A stretch of DNA of 61,249 nt from a virus, in IMG/VR virus record IMGVR_UViG_3300007871_000033, positions 1-61,249 of that record, one strand, 5' to 3'. Below, one piece after another: positions 1 through 21,589 of the stretch (within the stretch, counting starts at the first letter, position 1; each line of letters begins with the position of its first letter). The notes below the pieces were generated by a model. It worked only from the letters and a program-made list of their open reading frames with translations. It had not been told where the DNA came from and made no database searches. Both the position numbers and the translations under genes were made by a program.

Positions 1-76
1 TTTTTTTTTTCAAGCAGAAGACGGCATACGAGATCTAGTACGGTCTCGTGGGCTCGGAGATGTGTATAAGAGACAG
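1..76 (+). other. Illumina/Nextera sequencing adapter (artefact)
   Basis: Ten Ts are followed by the P7 flow-cell oligonucleotide (11-34), an 8-nt index (35-42) and the Nextera transposase read-2 adapter ending in the mosaic end AGATGTGTATAAGAGACAG (58-76). This is library DNA, not phage sequence. The small frames over it are meaningless. Confidence 0.97.
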
Positions 77-513: not shown

Positions 514-1102
514 CCAATTGTGCCATGGAAGGCCTCTAGCAGGCCCATACAGTCCCGATCGCCTCTACTGGTAGGGCAACCCATCCAAACCGTTTAGCAG
601 GGTTTTCACCCATAAGGGTTAGTGTAACTGTACAGTGTCACTGTGTGGCCCAGCCCACATCTATGGTCGATTATGTCGAATTCTGTTGACGTGGCTAAGT
701 ACCCGTAATGACTCGAGAATTGGGCCGTCAAGAGAAAAGCGACATGAGCCCAGTCAAATATCGTGCCATCCAGTCACAGCGGATAAATCCGTTGTCACTG
801 TAATGTGTCTAGTCTGGAGAAGTGTGAGCTACCTCACAAATCGGCCGCCGTCGAATGACCATACATGACCATACACTACATGACCATATACATAGGGCAA
901 CACACTTGGCACATACATTGCACCTAGCAAGAAGCGTGCCAGAGTTCTTGACCCGGGGGGTGAACATACACTGTGGGCGGGTCCCATACATGTGTGTGTA
1001 AAGTCCCTTCTCGACCGGTGTGTCAATATAACTTCATAAATATATTTTACAGCCAGTTATTGAAAAAGGGATCGTTTTGAAAGAAAGCACCCGATTACCC
1101 AT
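514..1102. other. Non-coding region before the first small-gene array
   Basis: About 590 nt without a convincing gene; the frames here are short, mixed-strand and lack ribosome binding sites. It holds the second GTGAGCTACCTCAC inverted repeat and several short direct repeats (CATACATGACCATACA-like, 860-895). It probably serves as a leader or control region. Confidence 0.5.
824..837 (+). promoter_or_regulatory. Operator-like inverted repeat, copy 2
   Basis: Exact second copy of GTGAGCTACCTCAC, about 300 nt before the first gene of the array. See 238-251. Confidence 0.4.
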
Positions 1103-1130
1103 TGACAGCCCTGGTAAGGGTCTTATCGTG
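1103..1130 (+). promoter_or_regulatory. Sigma70-type promoter for array 1
   Basis: TTGACA, 16 nt, TATCGT. The -10 box ends about 5 nt before the ATG at 1136, so transcription would start at or next to the start codon. This is the same geometry as the promoters at 11000 and 13277. Confidence 0.6.
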
Positions 1131-1135
1131 GGGAC

Positions 1136-1372
1136 ATGAGCGAAACGGAACCCCACAGCGTAGAATTTAGCACCAACTTCCGCTACCACTGCGTGCCCAA
1201 CGAGAGCAAAGAGACCCTGTGTGGAAACAGAGCCCTCGACATCGCCTGGGACCCACCCTACATCTGGTCCCAAAAGGACACATCGAGCCCCATCTCTGGG
1301 TCACTCCCCAGGTGTGACGCGTGCCTGGCGAGCGACGACCTACCCATGGCCCTCCTGGGAGACGTGCCATGA
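1136..1372 (+). CDS. His-CysGly-CxxC family protein, array 1 member 1
   Basis: A 78-aa protein and first gene of the array. It shows the pattern shared by 25 proteins here: a His near the N-terminus (H18), a Cys-Gly (C29-G30), and a C-terminal CxxC (C60, C63) followed by a hydrophobic tail ending LLGDVP. The four residues could make one His-Cys3 zinc site, which is inferred and not shown. The function is unknown. The GTGCCATGA junction couples it to the next gene. Confidence 0.85.
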   Translation: MSETEPHSVEFSTNFRYHCVPNESKETLCGNRALDIAWDPPYIWSQKDTSSPISGSLPRCDACLASDDLPMALLGDVP

Positions 1373-1599
1373 GCTTCGAAGTCATACAGGGTCACATGGC
1401 GTCCCGCGAGGAATACCTGAAGTGGGACAGATGGGACCAAGAGCACCTACTGGCGTTCTGCGGATTCAACCTGAACGACCAGTGGGGGGAGACCGGCGAC
1501 CTGGGGAGACAAGAGCACTGGGTAGCCGAGGACGGGCTGTGCCTGGAGTGCGTGGACCACCCTGACTACGTGCTCTCGGTACTGGCGGAGGTGCCGTGA
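1369..1599 (+). CDS. His-CysGly-CxxC family protein, array 1 member 2
   Basis: 76 aa. The start is set at ATG 1369, which overlaps the upstream TGA and follows GGAGA. Family residues are H26 (or H9), C31-G32 and C58/C61, with the tail SVLAEVP. Unlike member 1 the middle is rich in Trp and Glu. It overlaps the next gene at GTGA. Function unknown; a small zinc-ribbon-like protein is the simplest reading. Confidence 0.82.
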   Translation: MSFEVIQGHMASREEYLKWDRWDQEHLLAFCGFNLNDQWGETGDLGRQEHWVAEDGLCLECVDHPDYVLSVLAEVP

Positions 1600-1832
1600 A
1601 CCCGACCTACTACCACCTCGGGATGAAGCATGCCCCAGGGTGCGCCCCTATCATGGCGTGTGGCGTTCATCTGCGGAGTTCGGACGAGGGCAGCTGGGAC
1701 AACTGGCCTGAGTGGCAGCTGCACACCCACAGCTATGGTTCGAGGCATAACCCCAAGGTGCTTGGCGAACCCCGCTGCCCACGCTGTCTCGAAAGTGATT
1801 ACTACGGTATGTGTGTTCTGGGGGACCTGTGA
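1596..1832 (+). CDS. His-CysGly-CxxC family protein, array 1 member 3
   Basis: 78 aa from a GTG start (1596) overlapping the previous TGA. Family residues: H7 or H12, C22-G23, C61/C64, with a tail ending CVLGDL. The region between the two Cys motifs is rich in His and Trp. It is translationally coupled on both sides. Confidence 0.8.
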   Translation: MNPTYYHLGMKHAPGCAPIMACGVHLRSSDEGSWDNWPEWQLHTHSYGSRHNPKVLGEPRCPRCLESDYYGMCVLGDL

Positions 1833-2056
1833 GGGAGCTTCAGCATATCATCACTATCGTCTCCTTCGCTGATTCCCTGGGCGAGATGGATACTGTAACG
1901 ACAGGGTGTGGGCTGACCGTCAGCAACAAGGTACTGTTCGCCAAGGATAACAAGAGCCACAACCTCAATGCTGAGCGCTTCCTCCAGTCTGGGGTCAACA
2001 GGTGCCCAGGGTGTGAGGAGTACGCTACCCTCTATGTGCTAGCGAGCTTGCCATGA
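1829..2056 (+). CDS. His-CysGly-CxxC family protein, array 1 member 4
   Basis: 75 aa from a GTG at 1829, inside the stop overlap of member 3. An ATG at 1811 in the same frame is less likely because it lies well inside the previous gene. Family residues: H6, C27-G28, C59/C62; tail YVLASLP. Confidence 0.78.
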   Translation: MRELQHIITIVSFADSLGEMDTVTTGCGLTVSNKVLFAKDNKSHNLNAERFLQSGVNRCPGCEEYATLYVLASLP

Positions 2057-2346
2057 AGTATGATTTTTGGAAAAGGCGAGCGAAGGAAAAATCCGAACCT
2101 TCGGTTGACGAGGAGTTCTCGCTTCAACCGCTCAAACCCGACTTCTTATATAAAGATGTATTACTACATTGTTTCTCGTCGAGACCACTCGGCCTTTCCA
2201 CGTTGTGTGGGCTGGAGTACAGTGAGGTAGTGTTCGCCCACCGCCCTGGGATGTTCGTGGAACAACCCTATGATGATGTGCAGCTGTGCAAGGCCTGTAG
2301 GGACCACCCTGACCTGGCCTTGGAGATTCTAGGAGACCTCCCATGA
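2053..2346 (+). CDS. His-CysGly-CxxC family protein, array 1 member 5
   Basis: 97 aa with an extra basic N-terminal extension of about 30 residues. Family residues: H39, C52-G53, C79/C82; tail EILGDLP. The GGAGACCTCCCATGA at its end supplies the ribosome binding site and start of member 6. Confidence 0.85.
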   Translation: MKYDFWKRRAKEKSEPSVDEEFSLQPLKPDFLYKDVLLHCFSSRPLGLSTLCGLEYSEVVFAHRPGMFVEQPYDDVQLCKACRDHPDLALEILGDLP

Positions 2347-2606
2347 TATTGCCAGAGATAGGATCCATCTGGGTACATAAGTCTAGCCCCTACGACAAAG
2401 CGTATTACATGCCTAGGTCACTGAGGGTCGAAGACACCTACAAGACTATAGCCATCGAGCTGAATGATATGAAGACGCCATCTGAGCATATGGTCAAGGC
2501 AGTGGGGTGGGACTTCGTCCTGAAGGTAGAGGTGCTCCACCAGTGCTATGAAGAGGTCACAGACCCAGACGATATAGGATTCTTCCTGCTGCAGGAGATG
2601 CCATGA
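2343..2606 (+). CDS. Degenerate array member 6, metal residues lost
   Basis: 87 aa, placed and coupled like the other members and ending in the same type of tail (FFLLQEMP). It has no Cys-Gly and no CxxC; only one Cys remains, near residue 68. The frame is intact, so it is either a paralog with a new role or one kept as a translational bridge in the overlapping operon. Confidence 0.75.
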   Translation: MILPEIGSIWVHKSSPYDKAYYMPRSLRVEDTYKTIAIELNDMKTPSEHMVKAVGWDFVLKVEVLHQCYEEVTDPDDIGFFLLQEMP

Positions 2607-2854
2607 AGGTAGTTCACCTCATACACAAAGGAAAGGACGATAATGCCCTCTGTGGGCACAAATTAGATTACACTAAACATAAAGGAGACCAGGGCTGGTG
2701 TACCCTGCACCTAATAAGAAAGTATGCCCGTAACAACCCTCCTGATGCTGACCCCTCCAAGGAGTTCTGGAGAGTGCGGACCCCATGGAAATGGTGTGAG
2801 GAGTGCTTGACATCTTCTGATTACGCATTATTTGTATTGGGAGACCTCCCATGA
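2603..2854 (+). CDS. His-CysGly-CxxC family protein, array 1 member 7
   Basis: 83 aa. Family residues: H5, C17-G18, C65/C68; tail FVLGDLP. The linker between the Cys motifs is longer and basic. Its end again reads GGAGACCTCCCATGA. Confidence 0.85.
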   Translation: MKVVHLIHKGKDDNALCGHKLDYTKHKGDQGWCTLHLIRKYARNNPPDADPSKEFWRVRTPWKWCEECLTSSDYALFVLGDLP

Positions 2855-3069
2855 TTACTTTCCACATAGCGGTGAGAAAAGACCCAGAGATAGGCACGAT
2901 GATATTGCCTGTGCTTTGTGGGAAGCAAGTGTACTTCGATTCGCTGTGGAGGCAGGACGAGCGCTGGACTACTATAGAGGAGCTTGCGGAGGGCGACATG
3001 GAGTCGCTGCCTGACCATGTAAAGATTTGTGACGACTGTCTACTGCTGACCTTAGGAGAAGTAGGATGA
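2851..3069 (+). CDS. His-CysGly-CxxC family protein, array 1 member 8
   Basis: 72 aa. Family residues: H5, C23-G24, C60/C63. The segment after CxxC is shorter than in the neighbours (LLLTLGEVG). It overlaps the next gene at GGATGA. Confidence 0.82.
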   Translation: MITFHIAVRKDPEIGTMILPVLCGKQVYFDSLWRQDERWTTIEELAEGDMESLPDHVKICDDCLLLTLGEVG

Positions 3070-3290
3070 CCCAGGATCTAGACAAACTTGAGCAGCCTAT
3101 CTACAACCACTGCGCGGCCAGTGCCACTGACCAGAGTGTCACGCTGTGTGGTCAGAAGTGGCGGCTCTGGTGCTCTCTACCTGATCGCTTCCTTCTTTCG
3201 CTAGTCGGAAAAGACCCGGATAGCCCTCCGCCTTGCCCAGCGTGCATGGCCCACCCTGATTACCCACTCCTAGTCTTGGGACACATATGA
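3066..3290 (+). CDS. His-CysGly-CxxC family protein, array 1 member 9
   Basis: 74 aa. Family residues: H15, C28-G29, C57/C60; tail LLVLGHI. The start overlaps the previous stop. A Pro-rich stretch precedes CxxC. Confidence 0.83.
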   Translation: MTQDLDKLEQPIYNHCAASATDQSVTLCGQKWRLWCSLPDRFLLSLVGKDPDSPPPCPACMAHPDYPLLVLGHI

Positions 3291-3556
3291 TGACTACCAC
3301 CCACTTAGTTAGACAAGCCGTGGAGCCAGACTTCGAAGGCCTACTCCTACCTGCTACGCTGGTGTATTGTGGTGCGGACGACGTTCTGCGACACTCTGAC
3401 CATACAGAGGATGAAGTTCCGGTGGATGGCTGGTGTACCGTGGAGTTTGTGCTTAGCGAAGATGAAGACTATGAAGGTATCTATGGAGACACAACTCTTT
3501 GCCCTAAGTGCATGGAGCACCCCGATGTGGCTATAGCCTTTCTGGGGGAGCTATGA
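3287..3556 (+). CDS. His-CysGly-CxxC family protein, array 1 member 10
   Basis: 89 aa; ATG 3287 or 3290. Family residues: H6, C28-G29, C72/C75; tail AFLGEL. The middle is very acidic (many Asp and Glu). Confidence 0.84.
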   Translation: MMTTTHLVRQAVEPDFEGLLLPATLVYCGADDVLRHSDHTEDEVPVDGWCTVEFVLSEDEDYEGIYGDTTLCPKCMEHPDVAIAFLGEL

Positions 3557-3756
3557 GCCACCCAGACGAATCCCAGGACTTCCTCCATATCTACCCAGAC
3601 GGGCATGAGGACGGTACGGCCTACTGTGGGTCCTTGTGGCGCTACTCTGTCCCTCTGGAATGGTATCTCACCTCTGACAGTGTGGGTAACTATGAAATGT
3701 GCCAAGAGTGCCTGGCATCAGAGGAGTTCGCCCTGGCTGCGCTAGGCGCAGTATAA
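3553..3756 (+). CDS. His-CysGly-CxxC family protein, array 1 member 11
   Basis: 67 aa from ATG 3553, preceded by GGGGGAG. Family residues: H12, C25-G26, C50/C53; tail AALGAV. It is the last gene of the strictly overlapping run and is followed by AT-rich direct repeats (ATAATAAG twice). Confidence 0.84.
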   Translation: MSHPDESQDFLHIYPDGHEDGTAYCGSLWRYSVPLEWYLTSDSVGNYEMCQECLASEEFALAALGAV

Positions 3757-3818
3757 TAAGATATAATAAGCACTAAATCAATTGGCAAACCACTTACATA
3801 CAGCGACCTAACACTACT

Positions 3819-4073
3819 ATGTCATATAGACACCCATCAGAAACAGACGCATGTATCCACATAGCCACCACAGGCGACTGGAACAATGTGATGGTGTTCG
3901 TGGGCCTCAAGCCTTTGTGCGGCGTACTCTTACTGGGAATGAAAGACTTCGACTCCATTGTCACCGTATCGGACCTGGAGCACATGCCTCTAGCCGATGA
4001 TGAATACTTGTGTCCCTTCTGTCTGGAGCACGAGGACTACCCGCTACTTGTTCTCGCCTGCGTTGGCGAGTAG
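3819..4073 (+). CDS. His-CysGly-CxxC family protein, array 1 member 12
   Basis: 84 aa, separated from member 11 by 62 nt containing TATAAT-like sequence, so it may have its own promoter. Family residues: H14, C34-G35, C65/C68. Its last 30 nt overlap, antisense, the end of the convergent family gene at 4044-4271. Confidence 0.82.
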   Translation: MSYRHPSETDACIHIATTGDWNNVMVFVGLKPLCGVLLLGMKDFDSIVTVSDLEHMPLADDEYLCPFCLEHEDYPLLVLACVGE

Positions 4074-4271
4074 CATCAAGGTCCTAGCTTCCTCGTCCCT
4101 CCAGCAGATCTCACACTTCTCGTCTTCCGGGTAGTAGTCGATGTCTACTGCTGCCTCTTCCAGGGTGATGAGGACAGAGTATTGATCTCTCCATGCGCTG
4201 TCAGCAGAAAGGCCACACAAGGTCATTTCTCCATCAGGGAGGGCAATATGTACTTCTTCTATAGGTCTCAT
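4044..4271 (-). CDS. His-CysGly-CxxC family protein, minus-strand member 1
   Basis: 75 aa. Family residues: H8, C19-G20, C53/C56. The very acidic segment before CxxC resembles the other members, but the tail is ANAGENK rather than LGDxP, consistent with no gene following it. It converges on and overlaps member 12 of the plus array. Confidence 0.82.
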   Translation of the reverse strand: MRPIEEVHIALPDGEMTLCGLSADSAWRDQYSVLITLEEAAVDIDYYPEDEKCEICWRDEEARTLMLLANAGENK

Positions 4272-4292
4272 CTTTAGTGTAGCTTATGTTGG

Positions 4293-4322
4293 CTTATACA
4301 AGATCATTCTGGACTAAATCAA
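4293..4322 (-). promoter_or_regulatory. Promoter for minus-strand member 1
   Basis: Read on the minus strand: TTGATT, 18 nt, TATAAG, about 20 nt before the start at 4271. The -35 box lies in a TGATTTAGT motif that recurs on the minus strand near 3770 and 4405. Confidence 0.45.
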
Positions 4323-4487
4323 ACTTGGCATGTAGTTTATGATTAGCGTTTCCCCTGCGATTTCCAATGGTTGCGAGCCTCTCGATCATTTCGATCATAA
4401 CACTAAATCATTCCAAAACGTCAACCACGATCGGACCAGAAACGCTTATCAAATATAGGGGCTAATTCACACACTTAAAACGTTTTA

Positions 4488-4505
4488 TTGATCTTTAATG
4501 ATCAA
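4488..4505 (-). terminator. Weak terminator-like inverted repeat
   Basis: TTGATC, 6 nt, GATCAA, immediately after the stop of the minus-strand gene ending at 4506. AT-rich sequence with T runs follows on the minus strand. Confidence 0.4.
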
Positions 4506-4811
4506 CTATGGGAGAACAGCCAATAACGCCAGGTTGTAGTCTTCAGATTCCAGACATCGTAGGCATATCGTCTCATCATACCTACTCCGCATAACAAACC
4601 GCGTACTAGTCGTGTTGCTCCCGGTTCGCACCCTGACAGCGTTCAGGTTTCCTTTGGGGTCGCGCGGTCCTTCCAGGTGGTACGAGTATTTGGTGAAGAT
4701 CATCCCAGCGCGTAGCTTCGCCCCACAGAAGGTTTTGGGCCTTCCCTTATGAGGATCATCCCAGGTAATGTGTATCGGAACCATTGGTGCTGCCATAGTA
4801 GAAATAGACAT
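4506..4811 (-). CDS. His-CysGly-CxxC family protein, minus-strand member 2
   Basis: 101 aa. Family residues: H14, C29-G30, C83/C86; tail LLAVLP. The linker is longer and basic (many Arg, Ser and Thr). It stands alone, with non-coding DNA on both sides. Upstream there is TATAAT on the minus strand and the ATAAAGCTTTAT palindrome at 4886-4897. Confidence 0.82.
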   Translation of the reverse strand: MSISTMAAPMVPIHITWDDPHKGRPKTFCGAKLRAGMIFTKYSYHLEGPRDPKGNLNAVRVRTGSNTTSTRFVMRSRYDETICLRCLESEDYNLALLAVLP

Positions 4812-4885
4812 GGTGGAGTTATAGATCCGTTTTGTATAACCGCACCCAATTACCCATAAAAACCGGGTAAGGGGCTGGTTATCTC

Positions 4886-4897
4886 ATAAAGCTTTAT
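4886..4897. promoter_or_regulatory. ATAAAGCTTTAT palindrome
   Basis: A perfect 12-nt palindrome beside a minus-strand TATAAT, upstream of the gene starting at 4811. The core ATAAAGCTTTA recurs at 8290-8300, upstream of the other minus-strand operon. A possible operator. Confidence 0.35.
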
Positions 4898-4933
4898 TAT
4901 AATGGGTTTGTGAAATAAAGTATAGCGAATTTG

Positions 4934-5287
4934 CTATACACGCGCTAAAGCTAAAAGGCCAAACTCCTCCGACTCCAGACAGTCCTTACAGATCGTGAAA
5001 GTGTTACCATATCGGTATGAGTTGTAATACCCGTACATCTTGATGGAGTCCTTCGCCACCTCTCGGAAGTCCAGGCTGCAAGCCTCGATACCAGTCCTGG
5101 TCAGGTGGACTGAGTAGCTGATCTCCTCGTGCAGCTCTAGCTCACACCCTCCTAGCCAGAAGAGGCTCTTGGTTGGCATAACCCCATGGGTGCTCCCAGC
5201 AATCCTGCCGCACAACACTTCGGCACCCAGTCTGCAGGGTTCGTCGTTGTAGGGACCGTCCCCAAGATGTATTACTGGTTTATTCAT
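4934..5287 (-). CDS. His-CysGly-CxxC family protein, minus-strand member 3
   Basis: 117 aa, the longest member. Family residues: H7, C26-G27, C100/C103; tail ALARV. A 50-residue insert between the Cys motifs is rich in Tyr, Ser and His. A GTATAGC / GCTATAC inverted repeat overlaps its stop codon. Confidence 0.82.
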   Translation of the reverse strand: MNKPVIHLGDGPYNDEPCRLGAEVLCGRIAGSTHGVMPTKSLFWLGGCELELHEEISYSVHLTRTGIEACSLDFREVAKDSIKMYGYYNSYRYGNTFTICKDCLESEEFGLLALARV

Positions 5288-5351
5288 AAATATGTATCTA
5301 CTTACACTTGCGTCAAATTCTCTGTAGAATAGAAATCCGCTCTCACTGTAA

Positions 5352-5633
5352 TTAGGCAGCTACCAGGATATGCATCGCGTAACAGTCCTTGCAGAGGTGG
5401 AATACGCTTCCGCTGGGTCCGTGGAGGTAGTAACCTGTTCCTATCTTTATGAAGTTCGCAGTATGGTCATATCTGTGTCTGTAGATCATCAGGTCTTTTT
5501 GGTCACTCCAAACCATCCCATTGGCTAGGCTGTTGGGGTCGTTCTCCTCCCCACACAAGGTCGTAAGCTTGGTGTGGTCGTAGATATGCATCCCCTTGAG
5601 TAGGGAGTCCTCTCCTATGGAATATGTTTCCAT
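5352..5633 (-). CDS. His-CysGly-CxxC family protein, minus-strand member 4
   Basis: 93 aa. Family residues: H16 or H20, C27-G28, C81/C84; short tail ILVAA. Its start lies within the last codons of the HNH gene, so it is coupled to the upstream operon. The linker has several Tyr-His-Arg pairs. Confidence 0.82.
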   Translation of the reverse strand: METYSIGEDSLLKGMHIYDHTKLTTLCGEENDPNSLANGMVWSDQKDLMIYRHRYDHTANFIKIGTGYYLHGPSGSVFHLCKDCYAMHILVAA

Positions 5634-6004
5634 GTCCGTCTCTTCTGGATATCATACACGGTGTTCAGCGAAACGTTGTACTCTTCAGCTAAAAGCTTGG
5701 TGGAGTCCCCCATGTCGAGCCTGTTCCTCATCAAGAGCACGTTTGCCGCAGTCAGGCGCTTGTCGATGGTCAGGTGACCCGGTCTAACGCACAAAGGGTT
5801 CTTGCAGGTGTGGCGAACTGCCGCACCCTCTGGGATGGGGCCTTTGGCTAGCTCCCAGGCAATCTTGCCTGCTGTGTAATACTTACCTTGATAATAGAAC
5901 CGACCGTAGCCCATGTCGTTGGTGCAGCCGGTCCACATCCAGCAGCCCCCTCCTACTTTGACCTTCCGCCAGAACTTGTCTTCCTTTGAGGTCATGGTGT
6001 CCAC
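5615..6004 (-). CDS. HNH endonuclease with C-terminal helix-turn-helix
   Basis: 129 aa. Residues 18-80 match HNH_3-type homing nucleases: a GCWMWTG start, then RHTCKNPLCVRPGHL, where the His and the Cys pair form the metal centre. The C-terminal 35 residues (LLAEEYNVSLNTVYDI) look like a helix-turn-helix for DNA binding. It could be a mobile nuclease or a domesticated one. It sits between the methyltransferase and a His-CysGly-CxxC gene and overlaps both. Confidence 0.85.
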   Translation of the reverse strand: MDTMTSKEDKFWRKVKVGGGCWMWTGCTNDMGYGRFYYQGKYYTAGKIAWELAKGPIPEGAAVRHTCKNPLCVRPGHLTIDKRLTAANVLLMRNRLDMGDSTKLLAEEYNVSLNTVYDIQKRRTWKHIP

Positions 6005-6609
6005 GGCACGCTTCCAATGTCCATCCCAAAATCATCGAAGAGGGGGTCTGTGGCGTTTGCCTGGTCGAACCTGCTGAACAGCTCAATCTTCTTCTGGAGA
6101 GGGTGCATCTGCACAATGCGCTCGCGCACCTCTAAAGGTTTAGCAGAGTGCTGGGTCCTAGGAGCGAAAACCACTTGACGGACCTTTCTAGAGCCTCGTG
6201 GCTTAGGAACCCTGCGGACCTTGCTCACGTTGACCATCTCGCAGCTAGAGAGCGTATAATGTCCAGGATTGACCTGCAAAACCTGCCCGCCCTTAGTCTT
6301 GACCCACACGAAGGCTGTAGTGGCGTGTTTGAAGCCCCAAGCCTCTGTTACCTTCATGGCGTCTTCCAGAATGGGTGGGCTATACCACAAATACAGCAAA
6401 CACCCTTCCGGGTCTGTTATTCGCTTGATGTCGTCGCCCATCTTGCACAAGTCATCAACAGACATAGTAGTGTAGTACTCAGCGGCGCTAGACGAGTAGT
6501 CCTGGTCCTTTCCACCTCTTTGGACCTGCCCTCTGTAGCTCCAGGGGCAGTCGGCGTAGATGACCTGGTAAACGTTCTTACACTTCTTGAGATCTTTAAT
6601 CAATGCCAT
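5992..6609 (-). CDS. MT-A70 family adenine methyltransferase
   Basis: 205 aa. The N-terminal VIYADCPWSY is the catalytic motif of MT-A70 methyltransferases, normally DPPW and here DCPW. YLWYSPP and AFVWVKTKGG, with a later SKVRRVPKP segment, fit the fold. Probably N6-adenine methylation of phage DNA (protection from restriction); RNA is possible. It overlaps the HNH gene downstream and the small gene upstream. The Pro-to-Cys change should be tolerated but is unusual. Confidence 0.85.
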   Translation of the reverse strand: MALIKDLKKCKNVYQVIYADCPWSYRGQVQRGGKDQDYSSSAAEYYTTMSVDDLCKMGDDIKRITDPEGCLLYLWYSPPILEDAMKVTEAWGFKHATTAFVWVKTKGGQVLQVNPGHYTLSSCEMVNVSKVRRVPKPRGSRKVRQVVFAPRTQHSAKPLEVRERIVQMHPLQKKIELFSRFDQANATDPLFDDFGMDIGSVPWTP

Positions 6610-6812
6610 TAATACTCCCGTTCGCCTCTGCGGCTTGCGTTAACTTCTTTTATAACAGCCAACGCTGCTGCGTTCCAAGCCTTGTTAGCTACACTCTGGT
6701 CTATGCAAATGCCAGAGGTAACCATGGCATGTCGGTAAACTTCTCCGAAAGCTTTGAGTGCCGCTGCGCCCTCGGGCGTGATGGGCTCTATTGGCTTTCT
6801 ACTCATAGCCAC
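6609..6812 (-). CDS. Hypothetical protein (67 aa)
   Basis: A small Ala-rich, mostly helical protein with no recognised domain. Its stop overlaps the start of the methyltransferase gene, and its start overlaps the end of a 29-aa gene. Confidence 0.7.
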   Translation of the reverse strand: MAMSRKPIEPITPEGAAALKAFGEVYRHAMVTSGICIDQSVANKAWNAAALAVIKEVNASRRGEREY

Positions 6813-6892
6813 ATCTCCGTTGGGTACTGAAGTACGCGGTACTTCATGTCCAGCTGTCCAATCCTATACAACTCTTTAATCAAGTACATCAT
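6803..6892 (-). CDS. Tiny hypothetical protein (29 aa)
   Basis: The ATG at 6892 overlaps the stop of the upstream gene (ATGA). The frame runs 29 codons to TGA at 6803-6805, inside the start of the next gene. The product is MMYLIKELYRIGQL followed by 15 more residues. The exact fit between two overlapping neighbours supports it as a real small gene. Confidence 0.55.
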   Translation of the reverse strand: MMYLIKELYRIGQLDMKYRVLQYPTEMWL

Positions 6893-7092
6893 TTCTTTAC
6901 CTCTCTAACAGGGTAGGCGGAACCGCACTTGGGGCAGAACAAATAGAAGCACTCTAGCTCATGTGAGTACCTTTCGTGTAGACCATAGTTGCACTGGTAG
7001 AACCCTGCTTGAAAATCGCACGTAGCGCCCCAATGCCCATCCCAACGTTTGGGAGTAGACAAGACCCGCTCATATGGTACGTCGAGATTCAT
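6889..7092 (-). CDS. Small protein with C-terminal zinc-ribbon half
   Basis: 67 aa. It has two isolated Cys in the first half (C25, C34) and FCPKCGSAY near the end, a typical zinc-ribbon knuckle. It does not follow the His-CysGly order of the large family. Function unknown. ATGA overlaps on both sides. Confidence 0.72.
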   Translation of the reverse strand: MNLDVPYERVLSTPKRWDGHWGATCDFQAGFYQCNYGLHERYSHELECFYLFCPKCGSAYPVREVKK

Positions 7093-7283
7093 TTCTCAAG
7101 CCTAATCTCTAGGTCGTCATAGAAACCCTCTATGCGCCTAGCTAACTCCTCATCTTCAATACCATAGAGAGGAGGATCTCCCATTACGTTCAGGAGTAGC
7201 TGTCCAAGCCGCAGGTCGGGGTATCGTTCCCACACCTGCTCAATCCGTTGCAGTATCAGCGGAATTCTGTCTGGGTCTCTCAT
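7089..7283 (-). CDS. Conserved phage hypothetical (DPDRI..RLGQLL type)
   Basis: 64 aa. The pattern IxxIExxWxxxPDLRLGQLL, then YGIEDEEL, is seen in many phage and bacterial small proteins of unknown function. Helical and soluble. It overlaps both neighbours. Confidence 0.7.
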   Translation of the reverse strand: MRDPDRIPLILQRIEQVWERYPDLRLGQLLLNVMGDPPLYGIEDEELARRIEGFYDDLEIRLEK

Positions 7284-7501
7284 TGGAAGTCCTTGTTGGT
7301 CTGGGGGAGGCTTTTCTCCAGCAAGAGCAGGTGCCTCTCGGCTTCCTTCACCAAAGTCACCATCTGGTAGCCTTTAGTCTCCGCCGACCCATAGTTGTTA
7401 GCAAAGATGTGCTGACGTAGCTCCTCTGGCTTCAACCCCTTGAGGTTGTCCAGAATGAGCCGTAGTTCCTCAACGGCCTTGAGTAAGTCATCTTTGTTCA
7501 T
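7280..7501 (-). CDS. Hypothetical helical protein (73 aa)
   Basis: Leu- and Glu-rich, probably a helical hairpin. No recognised family. It is coupled to both neighbours by ATGA-type overlaps in the minus-strand operon. Confidence 0.65.
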   Translation of the reverse strand: MNKDDLLKAVEELRLILDNLKGLKPEELRQHIFANNYGSAETKGYQMVTLVKEAERHLLLLEKSLPQTNKDFQ

Positions 7502-7686
7502 TAGAAGTCAACCTTTGCTAGCTTCTCTAGAAGCAAGTCCACCTTGGCTTCGAGGATCTCCAGGTTGAGTACCGCTATTTCCTTACGTCTCCACTCCCCC
7601 ACGTTGGGGCCGCCTATACCACAGCTTTGTGGCTTTTCTGTCTTCATTCGGTGCCGCATCGCCTCTAGCTCTTCTAGGCGGGTCAT
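7501..7686 (-). CDS. Hypothetical coiled-coil protein (61 aa)
   Basis: Charged, heptad-like N- and C-terminal helices flank a Gly-rich SCGIGGPNVGEWRRKE turn. Phage proteins of this layout often act as small assembly or regulatory factors, but no role can be assigned. Confidence 0.62.
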   Translation of the reverse strand: MTRLEELEAMRHRMKTEKPQSCGIGGPNVGEWRRKEIAVLNLEILEAKVDLLLEKLAKVDF

Positions 7687-7862
7687 ACGCCCCAGTCCTC
7701 TCTGATAAGATCCCGAATCTCTCGGGGCGTCTCGTCAACTAAAGCTGTAGCGCCTTGCTTGAAAACAACATAAGTGTGTGGCTCCTTGCGCTCTGCCAAC
7801 ACGATATTCTCCTCGTTAACGAAGATGTCTGCTCGTGTTTCCGATCCCTTCAATATAATCAT
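7683..7862 (-). CDS. Small hypothetical protein (59 aa)
   Basis: The ATG at 7862 overlaps the stop of the upstream gene, and the stop overlaps the start of the next. It begins MIILKGSETRADIFVNEENI and carries ETPREIRDLI near the end, a layout like small beta-strand FlbD-type proteins, though the similarity is weak. Confidence 0.62.
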   Translation of the reverse strand: MIILKGSETRADIFVNEENIVLAERKEPHTYVVFKQGATALVDETPREIRDLIREDWGV

Positions 7863-8230
7863 ACCTGAATCTCCACTTGCTTGTCTAGTTCATAAAACTC
7901 GGTCTCAATAATCCCGTACTTACCTTGTGTGGTAACGTTGACCATCTTCAGGTCGTAGCTTAGCCCTAGCCCAATGACCGTTACAGGGCCGTTCATCCAA
8001 GACATGGCCCCGAAGATAGTGTCACCACACTTCAGCTTAGCGGCTGCCTTGAAGGCCTTCACATCAGGGTCTAGCGAGTGCTGAGACACTTCCAGTGCGG
8101 CTACAATCCAAGGCTCCTGCTCCTCAGGGGAAAGGTCTTCCCAGGGGACGATGTCCTTGTTGTCTTTCTTGAAGATGGCGAACGTCGAATGGACGTTGTA
8201 GTTGAGCTTCCCTAATTCATCTCTGGTCAT
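7859..8230 (-). CDS. Hypothetical protein (123 aa), first gene of the minus-strand operon
   Basis: The PWEDLSPEEQEPWIVAA segment (about 29-45) resembles the WxxLxxExxxxW motif of RyR-like and HMG-like helical domains. The second half is beta-rich. No confident function. It is the first gene of a run of overlapping minus-strand genes, downstream of the palindromes at 8290-8328. Confidence 0.65.
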   Translation of the reverse strand: MTRDELGKLNYNVHSTFAIFKKDNKDIVPWEDLSPEEQEPWIVAALEVSQHSLDPDVKAFKAAAKLKCGDTIFGAMSWMNGPVTVIGLGLSYDLKMVNVTTQGKYGIIETEFYELDKQVEIQV

Positions 8231-8289
8231 GCCCTTACCATAAGTCGGGCTGTAAAGAGGTCAAGGGGGTAATGCTACTTTTATTTCTT

Positions 8290-8328
8290 ATAAAGCTTTA
8301 AAGACTACTTTTGTAAACATGTTTACAA
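8290..8328. promoter_or_regulatory. Twin palindromes upstream of the minus-strand operon
   Basis: ATAAAGCTTTA (8290-8300), shared with 4886-4897, is followed by the perfect 18-nt palindrome TTGTAAACATGTTTACAA (8311-8328). They lie between two minus-strand genes, about 60-100 nt upstream of the operon start. Repressor operators are the likely explanation. Confidence 0.5.
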
Positions 8329-8340
8329 GCACACTGTAAT

Positions 8341-8706
8341 TCACCAGCTATAGAAGCATATAAGAGGTATGCCCTTGCGCGCAGCCGCAGTTGTTACTGC
8401 GTGGGCTACAACGGTATTATCATTCTTCCAGAAGGCTATGATAGCATCTGCTTGGTCAACAGCCCTGATGTGTCCTACTAAGGACTCTTCGAGATCGTTT
8501 ACGAAAGGAGATAGCTTCACCAACTCCATTGGAAGCTCCATTTTCTCTCCCCAGGCCTTGAGACTCAGGCCGAGGTTGCTACCGGCCCTATCAAGGATGA
8601 GACTCGACGGAGGCTGCCCAAGAGCAAGAAGTAGGCAAGGAAGTATTGCATCCAAGTCCTCCGGGCTGATCGGGGAGAACATGGGCTCAATTATGAGCAA
8701 TTTCAT
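8341..8706 (-). CDS. SLOG / DUF2493-like protein
   Basis: 121 aa. The C-terminal half reads ADAIIAFWKNDNTVVAHAV then GIPLICFY, the nucleotide-binding layout of YspA/cpYpsA-type SLOG proteins. The N-terminal half is less like the family. A nucleotide or NAD-derivative ligand is likely but unproven. It is transcribed separately from the operon downstream. Confidence 0.6.
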   Translation of the reverse strand: MKLLIIEPMFSPISPEDLDAILPCLLLALGQPPSSLILDRAGSNLGLSLKAWGEKMELPMELVKLSPFVNDLEESLVGHIRAVDQADAIIAFWKNDNTVVAHAVTTAAARKGIPLICFYSW

Positions 8707-9130
8707 AGGCTTACACTATAAGCACGAATGACTTTGTTGTAAAGGCCTTTTAAGGCCCGTAGCCCTATATGGTGCCTACCCCTAGCCCTAACCCTTGGAA
8801 CGCCTCTAAGGTGCCTTCTGGGGCCTCTAAGGGACTACTGTGATTCCATCCCTGGGGGCGTTTGTATTTTGCGGCCCACTCTTACTGTATAGTGCTAAGT
8901 ACTAAACTGAATCCTTAGGGAGTTGTGGCCGGTTCGGGCACGGCCTGCCCTTCCACTTTACAATATTAGCTGCATTAGTCAAGTACTGAAATATGTTTAC
9001 ATTCTTTTACAAGTATCTTTGTCTTACCCCCTAGACATCGCTATTCTACGCGTTATAGTCCCCCAGACGCTTTGTAGGGAAGAGAATTAGAAGAGTAGGT
9101 AGAGTAGGACCAGTAGGGGCCTAGAGGCCC
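8707..9130. other. Divergent intergenic control region
   Basis: About 490 nt to the next gene at 9198, separating minus-strand from plus-strand transcription. No gene seen. Contents include an AAGGCCTTTTAAGGCC stem, clusters of CCTAG/CCCTA repeats, TTTACA boxes at about 8957 and 8993, and a GGGCCTAGAGGCCC inverted repeat near 9117. Promoters for both directions are expected here. Confidence 0.5.
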
Positions 9131-9158
9131 TTGGAAAGCTAAATACAAGAACTATACC
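9131..9158 (+). promoter_or_regulatory. Probable promoter for array 2
   Basis: TTGGAA, 16 nt, TATACC, about 40 nt before the first gene of the second array. Confidence 0.45.
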
Positions 9159-9197
9159 ATATGTAGTGGCTATGATGAGAAGAGTCCTAAATTAGTT

Positions 9198-9392
9198 ATG
9201 AATGAGATCACACACAAGCTGGATAGCCAGAACCACTCCAAGCATATCTTCACCATACGGGGACTATGCGGCTACTTCGAGGTCTACGACCTAGAGGTCC
9301 ATAAGCAGTACGACACTCCCTTCATCGAAGAAGACTACAACTGTGAAGAGTGTCTGAGGGAAGAGGGCCTTGCCTTGTTGGAGCGGCTATGA
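9198..9392 (+). CDS. His-CysGly-CxxC family protein, array 2 member 1
   Basis: 64 aa. Family residues: H16 (or H13), C24-G25, C49/C52; tail ALLERL, whose codons give GGAGCGGCTATGA, the ribosome binding site and start of the next gene. The linker is short and acidic. Confidence 0.83.
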   Translation: MNEITHKLDSQNHSKHIFTIRGLCGYFEVYDLEVHKQYDTPFIEEDYNCEECLREEGLALLERL

Positions 9393-9580
9393 AGGATACA
9401 GTACATAAGTACAGGTTCTTCTTCGGACCTCGAAGGAATGGACAAACTATAGGCTATGCTTGGTGTGGGGAGGAAACTACGTTCTATCGGCCCCTCACAG
9501 CTTTAGACCTGCTTCTGGAGCCCAACTGTGAGGCTTGTTTAGATGAGCACGCTTTGGGCCTGTTAGGAGATGCGGAGTGA
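9389..9580 (+). CDS. His-CysGly-CxxC family protein, array 2 member 2
   Basis: 63 aa from ATG 9389. Family residues: H6, C26-G27, C47/C50; tail LLGDAE. It overlaps the GTG start of the next gene. Confidence 0.82.
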   Translation: MKDTVHKYRFFFGPRRNGQTIGYAWCGEETTFYRPLTALDLLLEPNCEACLDEHALGLLGDAE

Positions 9581-9798
9581 TCAAGCATCGTCATAAATAC
9601 TTTCTGAGAGAAGGGGACTGTAGTCAGGTTTACTCTAAGGCTTGGTGCGATGTTGAGACTGTCATAGTGAGTGAAGGGGACGATAAAGTAGTATTAGACT
9701 GGGAAGAGCCAATTGCTTGGACTTTGAAATCTACCACTTGCGAAGACTGTCTAGACGCTATAGGTTTAGGTATGTTAGACGAGACCTACTATGACTGA
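9577..9798 (+). CDS. His-CysAsp-CxxC family protein, array 2 member 3
   Basis: 73 aa from GTG 9577. Family residues: H6, C24 followed by Asp rather than Gly, C55/C58. The tail MLDETYYD departs from the usual Leu-Pro end. Confidence 0.8.
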   Translation: MIKHRHKYFLREGDCSQVYSKAWCDVETVIVSEGDDKVVLDWEEPIAWTLKSTTCEDCLDAIGLGMLDETYYD

Positions 9799-9976
9799 CA
9801 TACACAAGTTCAAGTGCTTCAACGGCGATCTCTATGATGGGAAGCGTATGGAGATGTGGTGTGGTGTCACGCTGGACACTACAGAGCACGATCACTACAC
9901 CAGGGACATGGACGGCGGAACCTGTGAGGAGTGCCTAGCTGAGAGAGCGCTCTACATGCTTGCGAGGGTGCCGTGA
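9791..9976 (+). CDS. His-CysGly-CxxC family protein, array 2 member 4
   Basis: 61 aa. Family residues: H5, C24-G25, C45/C48; tail MLARVP. The start lies 8 nt inside the previous gene. Confidence 0.82.
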   Translation: MTDIHKFKCFNGDLYDGKRMEMWCGVTLDTTEHDHYTRDMDGGTCEECLAERALYMLARVP

Positions 9977-10206
9977 CTGTTCACCTCATCAATGAGACTC
10001 GCGACGAAACCTACTGTGGTATCTCAGCGAAGTTCTTTCTGGACAAGGAAAACACCACCATGTGTGGTAATGTCAAATACCTACGTGGTCCAGTCACTGA
10101 GACTCATACAGACTTCTACACCAACGTAGCTACTCATGCTGCAGAGTTTGCGGACTGTGACGACTGTATGGAAGAGTATGGCCTCATTCTACTGGAGCGG
10201 CTATGA
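9973..10206 (+). CDS. His-CysGly-CxxC family protein, array 2 member 5
   Basis: 77 aa from GTG 9973. Family residues: H4, C15-G16, C62/C65; tail LLERL. A second Cys-Gly at C31 hints at an internal duplication or alternative ligand. Confidence 0.82.
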   Translation: MTVHLINETRDETYCGISAKFFLDKENTTMCGNVKYLRGPVTETHTDFYTNVATHAAEFADCDDCMEEYGLILLERL

Positions 10207-10430
10207 CCGACCCGCCCCTACAGCTCATACATTTGCACACAACCAAAATGACGATGACTCTGACGAGTGATAAGCCCGAACGCTGGGATCGTGTCCAGTA
10301 TACCTGCTGCGGCCTAAGTGTGATGGACCCTACAGTGTGGAATGTTATTCACTCTCACCTCCTCAATAAGGTGACTTGCGAAGAGTGTTTGAGTGTTTAT
10401 GCTTTAGAGAAGTTAGCGGAAGTGCCATGA
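10203..10430 (+). CDS. His-CysGly-CxxC family protein, array 2 member 6
   Basis: 75 aa. Family residues: H10 or H12, C35-C36-G37, C59/C62; tail KLAEVP. Thr- and Met-rich N-terminus. Confidence 0.82.
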   Translation: MTDPPLQLIHLHTTKMTMTLTSDKPERWDRVQYTCCGLSVMDPTVWNVIHSHLLNKVTCEECLSVYALEKLAEVP

Positions 10431-10612
10431 TGGTTCATTCTCCAAGAGTAGGTTGGTGGTATACCAACAAGAAGCTTCAAAGGAAGGGCGGCCTTACCAG
10501 TTGCTCCCAGAGGATGTATACCTCGCGCCGGATGTCCAGGGACTGGAGCAAGGTGACCTGCAAAAAGTGCAAAGCGGAGCATGCCCTCCAGCTGCTAGGG
10601 AGCTTGCCATGA
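10427..10612 (+). CDS. His-Cys-CxxC family protein, array 2 member 7
   Basis: 61 aa; ATG 10427 or 10430. Family residues: H4, C26 (followed by Ser), C45/C48; tail LLGSLP. It is strongly basic, unlike the acidic members, so binding to nucleic acid is conceivable. Confidence 0.8.
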   Translation: MMVHSPRVGWWYTNKKLQRKGGLTSCSQRMYTSRRMSRDWSKVTCKKCKAEHALQLLGSLP

Positions 10613-10809
10613 TCCATTATCTCAAACAGAAGTATAAGAACGTAAAGGGCAGTATCTCCTTCCTCGCCTGGTGCGGGGAGGACGATGACGTGCCTCAGAG
10701 GGACCTTAGCAATCCTATCCCTCGTAAGTTCACCTACAACATCAGCAACGTGAACTGTGAGGACTGCAAGGAAGCAGCGGCCTTAGAGGAGCTGAGCAAG
10801 ATTCCATGA
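10609..10809 (+). CDS. His-CysGly-CxxC family protein, array 2 member 8
   Basis: 66 aa from ATG 10609; the longer frame upstream lies inside member 7 and is not used. Family residues: H3, C22-G23, C50/C53; tail ELSKIP. Confidence 0.82.
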   Translation: MIHYLKQKYKNVKGSISFLAWCGEDDDVPQRDLSNPIPRKFTYNISNVNCEDCKEAAALEELSKIP

Positions 10810-11003
10810 GCGTAACCCACTACCAGTTTGGTGTATCCTATATAGAGGACGAAGAAGGCTGGAGGGTGCAGACTGGTTGTGATGAGGTCCTTTACAATGA
10901 CAACGGAATGTCTGATGACTGGACTTCTGAACATTTGAGCGAAGTTGACTGCCCGAAGTGCAGAGAAGTATATTCTTTAGAGATTTTGGCCGAGGTGCCT
11001 TGA
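10806..11003 (+). CDS. His-CysAsp-CxxC family protein, array 2 member 9
   Basis: 65 aa, last member of the array. Family residues: H5, C25 followed by Asp, C49/C52; tail ILAEVP. The promoter of the next gene (TTGACA at 11000) starts at its stop codon. Confidence 0.8.
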   Translation: MSVTHYQFGVSYIEDEEGWRVQTGCDEVLYNDNGMSDDWTSEHLSEVDCPKCREVYSLEILAEVP

Positions 11004-12571: not shown

Positions 12572-13264
12572 GTGAAACTTTTTAGACAACGTGTGTGTTG
12601 TTTCGGCAGGAGACCCTTGTGTGTGTGGGGTTTCCTGCCACTTTTAATTGTGAGCATGCTCTTTCTAGCGACATCCATACCTGGTTGTAACAAAAACAAG
12701 AAGTATCTTCTTGATGGTGGCCACATGATCAAGAACGACCACGAGGTCTACTGGGAGGCTAAACACTTCCCTATTGTGGTGTTCGTGGATGAGAACATGC
12801 CTGGCCACGCTATCCTAGGTGTGTATGAAGCAGTAGAGGCTTGGAACGTTGCAGTTGGTGCTAGGGTGTTCGATCTTGTACCAATCAACTTCTTGGAGAG
12901 ACTCCCCCAGGGCTGTGGCTGGATCGCAGCTGTATACAAGGACATAAGCAACGACGGAAAGTGGAGAGGGGTTCAGAAAGAGGGGACCTCTAAGTTGTGC
13001 GTAGGCGAGGTTGCTATCCGACCCGGCACCCCTTGGGTGTACTCAGGAAAGCTGTATACACATGAGCTAGGACACGGGTTGGGCCTCGCGCACGACCACG
13101 GGGACAAGCGCTCTATAATGCACCCAACAGTGTTCTCAGATTACCCTCAGTACGTCATGCCAGATGATGTGGCCTCTGTCAAGCAAATGATGACAGCCAA
13201 CTTCAACCCCATGGAGTACACCCTCAAGTCAAGGCTTGAGAAAGCCCTTCTGGGTCTGAATTAG
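12572..13264 (+). CDS. Secreted metzincin-type zinc metalloprotease lipoprotein
   Basis: 230 aa from GTG 12572. A basic N-terminus and hydrophobic stretch end in SIPGC (C38), a probable lipobox, so the product is likely exported and lipidated. At 164-175 it has HELGHGLGLAHD, the HExxHxxGxxH zinc site of metzincins; SIM follows at about 181 as the Met-turn. Matrixin-like. A lipid-anchored protease encoded by a phage could act on host surface proteins or superinfecting phage. It has its own promoter. Confidence 0.85.
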   Translation: MKLFRQRVCCFGRRPLCVWGFLPLLIVSMLFLATSIPGCNKNKKYLLDGGHMIKNDHEVYWEAKHFPIVVFVDENMPGHAILGVYEAVEAWNVAVGARVFDLVPINFLERLPQGCGWIAAVYKDISNDGKWRGVQKEGTSKLCVGEVAIRPGTPWVYSGKLYTHELGHGLGLAHDHGDKRSIMHPTVFSDYPQYVMPDDVASVKQMMTANFNPMEYTLKSRLEKALLGLN

Positions 13265-20365: not shown

Positions 20366-20439
20366 TCGGGCTTCGTCTAACGGTAGGACGGTGGTTTCTG
20401 GTACCATCAATTGGGGTTCGAGTCCCTAAGCCCGATCCA
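20366..20439 (+). tRNA. tRNA-Gln (CTG)
   Basis: Acceptor TCGGGCT/AGCCCGA, anticodon loop TTCTGGT, TTCGAGT T-loop, CCA encoded. First tRNA of the cluster. Confidence 0.9.
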
Positions 20440-20440
20440 T

Positions 20441-20514
20441 TGGGGGATCGTCTAACGGCAGGACGCGAGCCTTTGGCACTCGCTATCGAGGTTCGAATCC
20501 TCGTCCCCCAGCCA
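20441..20514 (+). tRNA. tRNA-Gln (TTG)
   Basis: Acceptor TGGGGGA/TCCCCCA, anticodon loop CTTTGGC, CCA encoded. One nt after the first Gln tRNA, from which it probably arose by duplication (same D arm). Confidence 0.88.
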
Positions 20515-20542
20515 TTGACAAGTAACCATACGTGACCATAGT
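20515..20542 (+). promoter_or_regulatory. Promoter inside the tRNA cluster
   Basis: TTGACA at 20515-20520, 16 nt, CATAGT, just before tRNA-Pro. Confidence 0.4.
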
Positions 20543-20551
20543 AAATAATAC

Positions 20552-20628
20552 CGGGGTATAGCACAGCCTGGCAGTGCGCTCGCTTTGGGAGCGAGAGGTC
20601 GCAAGTTCGAATCTTGCTACCCCGACCA
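20552..20628 (+). tRNA. tRNA-Pro (TGG)
   Basis: Acceptor CGGGGTA/TACCCCG, anticodon stem CTCGC/GCGAG around TTTGGGA, CCA encoded. Confidence 0.92.
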
Positions 20629-20668
20629 TGTTAAACAATAGTTCCTCTTTGACAACTGAATATTTCTT

Positions 20669-20741
20669 TGTGCGATAGGCAAATAGGTAAGCCAGCTGAC
20701 TGTTAATCAGTTGATTGCAGGTTCGAACCCTGCTCGCACAG
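20669..20741 (+). tRNA. tRNA-Asn (GTT)
   Basis: Acceptor TGTGCGA/TCGCACA, anticodon loop CTGTTAA, TTCGAAC T-loop; CCA not encoded. Confidence 0.92.
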
Positions 20742-20848
20742 CTACATAGCTCTGGCATGTTGCAACATGTGCAGAGTTAGGGTTAACCCGTCACCCGGTG
20801 GGGTGCAATCTAGAAACCTGTATTTATCGCAGGGGGCGGGTTCCCGGA
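20742..20848 (+). ncRNA. Unassigned structured element between tRNAs
   Basis: About 107 nt with three successive perfect symmetric elements: CTCTG-CATGTTGCAACATG-CAGAG (20750-20776), GGGTTAACCC (20780-20789) and CACCC-GGTG-GGGTG (20792-20805). A GGGTTCCCG segment like a tRNA T-arm end follows. No tRNA can be folded through it. A structured RNA, a processing site or a protein-binding region are possible. Confidence 0.4.
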
Positions 20849-20851
20849 TCT

Positions 20852-20921
20852 ATACCATTGATGTAGTGGCGCATGACTGATTCCAAACCAGTTCGACGGG
20901 GTTCGATTCCTCGATGGTATG
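20852..20921 (+). tRNA. tRNA-Trp (CCA)
   Basis: Acceptor ATACCAT/ATGGTAT, anticodon loop TTCCAAA, TTCGATT T-loop; 3' CCA not encoded. Confidence 0.85.
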
Positions 20922-20924
20922 CAA

Positions 20925-20996
20925 GCCGCCATGGTCCACCGGCTACGACGCCCCGTTGTCTGCGGGGAAAACTCGGTTCGACCCCGAGTGGCGGCG
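20925..20996 (+). tRNA. tRNA-Asp (GTC)
   Basis: Acceptor GCCGCCA/TGGCGGC, anticodon stem CCCCG/CGGGG around TTGTCTG, G73; CCA not encoded. Confidence 0.9.
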
Positions 20997-21000
20997 CAAT

Positions 21001-21076
21001 GCTCTGATAGCTTAGTCGGTATAAGCGTCTGGTTGAAGCCCAGAAGTCCCCCGTTCGATTCGGGGTCAGAGCACCA
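21001..21076 (+). tRNA. tRNA-Phe (GAA)
   Basis: Acceptor GCTCTGA/TCAGAGC, anticodon loop TTGAAGC, CCA encoded. Confidence 0.93.
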
Positions 21077-21082
21077 ATATTA

Positions 21083-21163: not shown

Positions 21164-21165
21164 CT

Positions 21166-21239: not shown

Positions 21240-21243
21240 TTTT

Positions 21244-21319: not shown

Positions 21320-21330
21320 AAGGAGGCTCA

Positions 21331-21582: not shown

Positions 21583-21589
21583 ACCTTTA

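What the first reader, a model, noticed from the sequence alone, without database searches (positions are those of the whole stretch)
1136..11003. 25-member expanded family of His / Cys-Gly / CxxC mini-proteins
Seen: three blocks (12 at 1136-4073 plus, 4 at 4044-5633 minus, 9 at 9198-11003 plus) encode 61-117 aa proteins. Each has a His near the start, a Cys-Gly (twice Cys-Asp, once Cys-Ser), a variable linker, and a C-terminal CxxC followed by a short hydrophobic tail. One is degenerate. Known: single small H-C-CxxC proteins occur in actinobacterial phages. Inference: a zinc-binding scaffold with a hypervariable middle, amplified in place, such as a panel of host-factor or defence inhibitors or decoys.
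Basis: partly seen in the sequence, partly recalled or inferred. Interest (0 to 1): 0.9.

Follow-up and report, generated by a model that had tools for sequence, protein, structure and literature searches.

The report
Phage array of zinc-binding mini-proteins
A phage distantly related to Bacillus phage SPO1 carries 24 intact, very divergent copies (plus one decayed copy) of one tiny, probably zinc-held protein in tightly coupled gene arrays, at a spot where related phages amplify other small proteins; it looks like a self-made panel of proteins for taking over the host cell, although no function has been tested.

Summary
Three blocks (1136-4073 +, 4044-5633 -, 9198-11003 +) encode 24 intact members and one degenerate copy (2343-2606). 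All 24 keep His, Cys and C-terminal CxxC despite about 25% mean identity; residue shuffles give 0.08 matches (max 2). Profiles from one block recover members of the others. After correcting starts, 17 of 18 junctions in blocks 1 and 3 are 4-nt stop/start overlaps, and the next gene's ribosome site often lies inside the C-terminal tail codons.

The phage has an SPO1-like head module (~42% identity) and 29 tRNAs; it is not actinobacterial. No Pfam, PHROG, NCBIfam or PADLOC family fits. Relatives carry the family: nine copies in G008 at the same locus, two in G006, one in G018, two or three in G059. At that locus G009 amplifies two other small families (11 and 7) and G008 a second one (7).

Best reading: zinc-stabilised mini-scaffolds with variable loops, an early, lineage-specifically expanded host-takeover or counter-defence cassette. 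A lead to the tRNA-binding domain of pyrrolysyl-tRNA synthetase (profile E 0.0025; fold ranks 2 and 5) failed most cross-checks, and the charge is wrong. Zinc, targets and timing are untested.

The parts
1102..1129 (+). sigma-70-like promoter candidate directly before block 1
   Evidence: TTGACA-16-TATCGT, 10/12; the region holds 23 such sites against 10.8 +/- 2.6 in shuffles; consensus match only
1136..1372 (+). m01, 78 aa
   Evidence: H-CG-CxxC; 4-nt overlap with m02
1369..1599 (+). m02, 76 aa (start corrected)
   Evidence: H-CG-CxxC
1596..1832 (+). m03, 78 aa
   Evidence: H-CG-CxxC
1829..2056 (+). m04, 75 aa (start corrected)
   Evidence: H-CG-CxxC
2053..2346 (+). m05, 97 aa
   Evidence: H-CG-CxxC
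2343..2606 (+). m06, degenerate copy, 87 aa, frame open
   Evidence: no CG, no CxxC; both 4-nt overlaps kept
2603..2854 (+). m07, 83 aa
   Evidence: H-CG-CxxC
2851..3069 (+). m08, 72 aa
   Evidence: H-CG-CxxC
3066..3290 (+). m09, 74 aa
   Evidence: H-CG-CxxC
3287..3556 (+). m10, 89 aa, net charge -17
   Evidence: H-CG-CxxC
3553..3756 (+). m11, 67 aa (start corrected); structure model pLDDT 75
3819..4073 (+). m12, 84 aa, not coupled
   Evidence: H-CG-CxxC
4044..4271 (-). m13, 75 aa, convergent overlap with m12
   Evidence: H-CG-CxxC
4506..4811 (-). m14, 101 aa
   Evidence: H-CG-CxxC
4934..5287 (-). m15, 117 aa
   Evidence: H-CG-CxxC
5352..5633 (-). m16, 93 aa, start overlaps the HNH gene
   Evidence: H-CG-CxxC
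5615..6004 (-). HNH endonuclease with an HTH-like C-terminus, upstream of block 2; possible mobility element
   Evidence: PF13392 2e-9, PHROG HNH 8e-26
5992..6609 (-). MT-A70 adenine methyltransferase, same minus-strand gene run
   Evidence: PF05063 2e-14
8707..9197 (.). divergent intergenic region between the minus gene run that ends in block 2 and plus block 3
   Evidence: promoter-like sites 8743-8715 (-) and 9032-9059 (+), each 10/12
9198..9392 (+). m17, 64 aa
   Evidence: H-CG-CxxC
9389..9580 (+). m18, 63 aa (start corrected)
   Evidence: H-CG-CxxC
9577..9798 (+). m19, 73 aa (Cys-Asp)
   Evidence: H-CD-CxxC
9791..9976 (+). m20, 61 aa
   Evidence: H-CG-CxxC
9973..10206 (+). m21, 77 aa
   Evidence: H-CG-CxxC
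10203..10430 (+). m22, 75 aa
   Evidence: H-CG-CxxC
10427..10612 (+). m23, 61 aa (Cys-Ser; net charge +11; start corrected)
10609..10809 (+). m24, 66 aa (start corrected)
   Evidence: H-CG-CxxC
10806..11003 (+). m25, 65 aa (Cys-Asp); structure model pLDDT 85

Best explanation
This is an early-type gene cassette in which one metal-held mini-fold has been duplicated about 25 times and then diverged. A His on the first strand, a Cys-Gly at the end of the hairpin, and a CxxC at the start of the C-terminal helix most likely hold one zinc ion. That fixes the frame and leaves the loops free to change in length, sequence and charge. Genes within the two plus-strand blocks are translationally coupled, so one transcript would make the whole panel together. 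The panel most likely binds host proteins (or other macromolecules) early in infection, for host takeover or counter-defence, in the position where SPO1 keeps its host takeover module. Shown: family, ligand invariance, gene overlaps, presence in relatives, amplification of other small families at the same locus. Inferred: zinc, translational coupling, early expression, binding role. Unknown: the targets.
For: H, C, C, C invariant in 36 of 36 proteins while mean identity is about 25%, so the fold is under selection. Models agree on strands plus a C-terminal helix. 17 of 18 junctions are 4-nt overlaps; 12 of 18 coupled starts but 0 of 7 uncoupled ones have an SD-like GGAG/GAGG about 6-12 nt upstream, written in the previous gene's tail codons (Fisher p about 0.004, my arithmetic). 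Promoter-like sites are enriched, 23 against 10.8 +/- 2.6, and sit before blocks 1 and 3. G008 has nine members upstream of an M10-protease-like gene, HAD and RNR genes, as in the window. At that locus G009 has 11 + 7 paralogs of different ~70-aa families, and G008 seven of another. In SPO1 the order is 26-gene takeover module, small genes, tRNAs, RNR, portal, capsid (PMC6873191); the window has arrays, RNR, tRNAs, portal, capsid.
Against: No target, expression or metal data. No sequence homology to SPO1 takeover genes. The left end of the contig is an adapter artefact, so a terminal-repeat position cannot be tested. Some relatives with long contigs (G007, G027, G014) show no array of this family. 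Promoter hits are consensus matches only. Some members could be translationally coupled passengers without function.
Confidence: 0.55

Rival explanations
1. The family is a stand-alone relative of the N-terminal tRNA-binding zinc domain of pyrrolysyl-tRNA synthetase (PylSn). Each copy would bind the core of particular phage or host tRNAs, shielding or steering them, in a phage group rich in tRNA genes.
For: The 36-row profile ranks two PylRS N-terminal domain chains first of 177,635 PDB sequences (E 0.0025 and 0.0047), with His, Cys-Gly and CxxC in register. Foldseek with the m25 model ranks 5ud5 and 5v6x 2nd and 5th of 350,542 chains. In G006 and G018 the members lie beside or inside tRNA arrays.
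Against: Fold E-values are about 0.9-1.1 and TM 0.44. Window-only, G008-only and block-3-only profiles do not hit it; hhalign probability is 1.6-13%; a PylSn HMM does not pick out the members; TIGR03912 finds nothing in the window; the block-1 model does not match it. PylSn net charge is +10 to +17, the window members average -5.5. Copy number does not follow tRNA number: G008 has nine members and 2 tRNAs, G009 38 tRNAs and none found.
Confidence: 0.1
2. The proteins are acidic nucleic-acid mimics or decoys: zinc-held, negatively charged bodies that occupy DNA- or RNA-binding host and defence proteins.
For: 21 of 24 members are net negative, down to -17. SPO1 Gp44, a takeover-module protein, is a DNA mimic (PMC8208478, listed).
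Against: Neighbouring small ORFs are also acidic (mean -3); m23 is +11 and m14 +5; three G008/G059 members are basic (+3 to +6). One mimic would not need 25 forms.
Confidence: 0.12
3. The proteins are small DNA- or RNA-binding zinc fingers that regulate phage genes.
For: CxxC-based zinc modules often bind nucleic acids (general knowledge); some G008 members are basic.
Against: Mostly acidic in the window, and no hit to known zinc-finger families above chance level.
Confidence: 0.1
4. Runaway duplication with little function: copies spread by recombination or nearby HNH nucleases and are drifting; frames stay open only because translation is coupled.
For: One copy is degenerate but open (2343-2606); HNH genes lie next to members in the window and in G059.
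Against: All four ligands are invariant in every other copy, uncoupled ones (m12-m16) included, despite saturated divergence.
Confidence: 0.1

Closest known systems
SPO1 host takeover module (Bacillus phage SPO1, genes 37-60; PMC6873191)
   Same: Cluster of small genes in operons at one end of the genome, before tRNA/RNR/portal/capsid genes; the window's head genes are SPO1-like
   Different: SPO1's module is a set of differing proteins; here one fold is repeated 25 times, and no member is found in SPO1
[quoted passage not shown] PDB 5ud5, 5v6x)
   Same: Small domain with His, Cys-Gly and CxxC in the same order; binds one zinc (PMC11467909); top profile hit
   Different: Strongly basic tRNA binder; most cross-checks fail
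Paralog arrays in related phages G009 and G008 (other families)
   Same: Dense arrays of about 60-90 aa genes at the same locus upstream of HAD/RNR
   Different: Different sequence families without the H-C-CxxC ligands
FmdB/Zn_ribbon_8 zinc ribbons (TIGR02605, PF09723)
   Same: CxxC-containing small zinc modules; weak hits for two members
   Different: Defined by two CxxC pairs; here there is one, plus His and Cys-Gly

Membership tests
   invariant columns; cross-block HMM recovery
   m25 pLDDT 85 and m11 pLDDT 75 share strands plus a C-terminal helix starting at CxxC; other members not modelled, models not superposed
   inferred from four invariant ligand-type residues
SPO1-type host takeover module | cluster of small genes upstream of tRNA/RNR/portal/capsid genes | tested here: met
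SPO1-type host takeover module | early promoters | tested here: inconclusive
   promoter-like sites enriched 2-fold, no expression data
SPO1-type host takeover module | lies in the terminal redundancy | not testable with these tools
   contig end is an adapter artefact
SPO1-type host takeover module | homologous genes | tested here: not met
   A2 profile finds nothing in SPO1 or three SPO1-like phages
PylSn (PylRS N-terminal domain) | passes TIGR03912 cut-off | tested here: not met
PylSn (PylRS N-terminal domain) | H, C-G, CxxC ligand order | tested here: met
PylSn (PylRS N-terminal domain) | basic, tRNA-binding surface | tested here: not met
   net charge -5.5 against +12.5
PylSn (PylRS N-terminal domain) | same fold | tested here: inconclusive
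   ranks 2 and 5 but E about 1; absent for the second model
Known defence proteins (PADLOC-DB) | match to any of 5027 models | tested here: not met
   no hit in 36 members

The most novel reading that the evidence does not exclude
A diversifying locus: each lineage of this SPO1-like phage group amplifies a different small fold into dense multi-gene arrays at one site, and this phage has turned a single zinc-held mini-scaffold into about 25 binders with different loops and charges, a viral equivalent of a binder library aimed at host or defence proteins.
Probability: 0.3. Interest if true: 0.8.

Novelty: new variant of a known kind. Interest (0 to 1): 0.6.

Why it matters
Takeover modules of large phages are usually read as lists of unrelated orphan genes. 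Here most of the cassette is one family repeated under strict ligand conservation, and relatives use other families at the same place. If confirmed, this gives a testable route by which phages make new host-binding proteins (duplicate one stable zinc scaffold, vary its loops) and about 40 natural variants of one scaffold to screen against host and defence proteins. It also shows a family that PHROGs, Pfam and NCBIfam do not hold.

Tried and rejected
Known-family scans (PHROG, Pfam, NCBIfam, PADLOC) gave only chance-level hits. DNA- and protein-level searches of 50,697 phage records with a block and three members gave no hit with E below 1. Actinobacterial-phage origin: not supported. PylSn kinship: pursued with 26 archaeal PylSn sequences, reverse HMM, profile-profile comparison, subset profiles and a second model, and demoted to a rival. 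One member per phage tRNA: rejected, counts do not match. Family-wide alignments A1 and A5 were too divergent for the collection scan; scans with m07, the MT-A70 gene and the M10 protease found no relatives. Near-identical strains covering the arrays were not found, so strain-level variation and selection tests could not be done. The family tree is saturated (median end branch 3.55 changes per column) and only shows clustering by phage. Weak candidate members in G007/G020 (L108:1142-1483) and in Pumpernickel were left undecided.
Full report
OBSERVATION. Twenty-four match H-x(8-45)-C[GDS]-x(10-95)-CxxC close to the C-terminus. Shuffling residues within the same proteins gives 0.08 matches on average and never more than 2 in 5000 trials; 0.36% of 9718 control ORFs match; the rest of the window has none. 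Profiles from single blocks recover the others: with the block-1 profile 11 of 13 outside members outrank every non-member among 916 ORFs, with the block-3 profile 12 members do. Only two members were modelled, one at pLDDT 85 and one at 75; both show strands followed by a C-terminal helix that begins at the CxxC.

ANATOMY. Correcting starts by the previous stop gives ten of ten 4-nt overlaps (ATGA or GTGA) in m01-m11 and seven 4-nt plus one 8-nt overlap in m17-m25. The conserved tail endings (LGDLP, LAEVP and similar) contain GGAG or GAGG about 6-12 nt before the next start in 12 of 18 coupled junctions; none of the seven uncoupled genes (m01, m12-m17) has such a site. So part of the tail conservation is a ribosome-binding constraint on DNA, while the L-x-x-L helix pattern is protein-level. 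The degenerate m06 has lost Cys-Gly and CxxC but keeps its frame and both overlaps, which fits a need to keep downstream translation coupled (inference). H to first Cys spans 11-27 residues and first to second Cys 19-74. Net charge runs from -17 to +11, mean -5.5. Block 2 lies at the distal end of a minus-strand gene run that includes an MT-A70 methyltransferase and an HNH nuclease; that run and block 3 diverge from the intergenic region 8707-9197, which holds promoter-like sites for both directions.

PHAGE. Portal and capsid match Herelleviridae/SPO1-type phages at about 42%, with a ribonucleotide reductase, sheath and 29 tRNAs. Capsid relatives in IMG/VR reach 100%. The record is a 61,249-base viral fragment.

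RELATIVES. Members occur in G008 (77% capsid identity; nine aligned members at L066:3544-6857, upstream of an M10-protease-like gene, HAD and RNR genes, as in the window), in G006 (two, beside tRNAs; 84% capsid), in G018 (one, among tRNAs; 72% RNR) and in G059 (two clear, one weaker; same metagenome as G008 and perhaps the same phage). The four ligands are invariant over 36 aligned proteins. A tree is saturated but copies cluster by phage: 14 label changes against 22.8 in shuffles. At the same place G009 has arrays of 11 and 7 paralogs of unrelated ~70-aa families and G008 a further array of seven; the members of those families that I scanned are also unannotated. Long contigs G007, G014 and G027 show no array of the H-C-CxxC family.

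MECHANISM. Invariant ligands with saturated divergence and variable loops point to a stable frame presenting changing surfaces. Overlapping genes and promoter-like sites suggest joint, early production. The gene order (small-gene arrays, RNR, tRNAs, portal, capsid) resembles SPO1, whose 26-gene host takeover module lies in the terminal repeat (PMC6873191). The best reading is therefore a host-takeover or counter-defence panel built on one scaffold. Zinc binding, expression time and targets are inferred or unknown.

THE PYRROLYSINE LEAD. The 36-row profile put the PylRS N-terminal domain first in the PDB, and the m25 model put it 2nd and 5th by fold. That domain binds one zinc and fits into the concave surface of the tRNA's T- and variable loops (PMC11467909) and is described as lacking known homologs among RNA-binding proteins (PMC11363022), so kinship would be striking. 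I fetched 26 archaeal sequences. Reverse HMM search, hhalign, subset profiles and the second model did not support it, PylSn is strongly basic while this family is acidic, and copy number does not track tRNA number. It stays as a rival at about 0.1.

NOVELTY. The family is in none of the four libraries searched. Small-gene takeover modules are known; one made of a single repeated scaffold, at a site where relatives repeat other scaffolds, was not found in the papers searched (open-access only). I rate it a new variant of a known kind.

Noticed in passing
window 1-76 (and perhaps to about 207): Poly-T plus Illumina P7 primer, index and Nextera transposase sequence, then GCGCCCCCAAGCACGTCGA-type repeats: an assembly artefact at the contig end, not phage DNA.
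   Followed up: yes
L081 3491-5635, 6090-6338 and 6941-8097 (G009): Two other expanded families of ~70-aa proteins (11 and 7 members) in dense minus-strand arrays at the locus that corresponds to the window's arrays.
   Followed up: partly
L066 644-3513 (G008): Another array of divergent ~80-aa paralogs (pattern IYxAIDxxSKxxxxSIIVxxIYY), seven by phmmer linkage, directly beside the H-C-CxxC members.
   Followed up: partly
window 20366-27265: 29 tRNA genes; capsid relatives G007, G009 and G027 have 33-38. ARAGORN labels one tRNA of G009 as tRNA-Pyl (L082:12246), not checked.
   Followed up: partly
window 12572-13264: Predicted matrixin-type (M10) metalloprotease with a lipoprotein-like N-terminus; G008 has a similar protein at L066:8979-9617.
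   Followed up: no
window 7683-7862: 59-aa protein with a weak FlbD (flagellar/swarming) Pfam match (E 0.0005, below the curated cut-off).
   Followed up: no
window 31135-33525: 796-aa protein with a long [18 protein letters not shown] lysine-alanine repeat just before the portal gene.
   Followed up: no
window 1129-1136: The -10-like hexamer before m01 ends 6 nt before its ATG, which would make the block-1 mRNA nearly leaderless; uncoupled members also lack SD-like sites.
   Followed up: no
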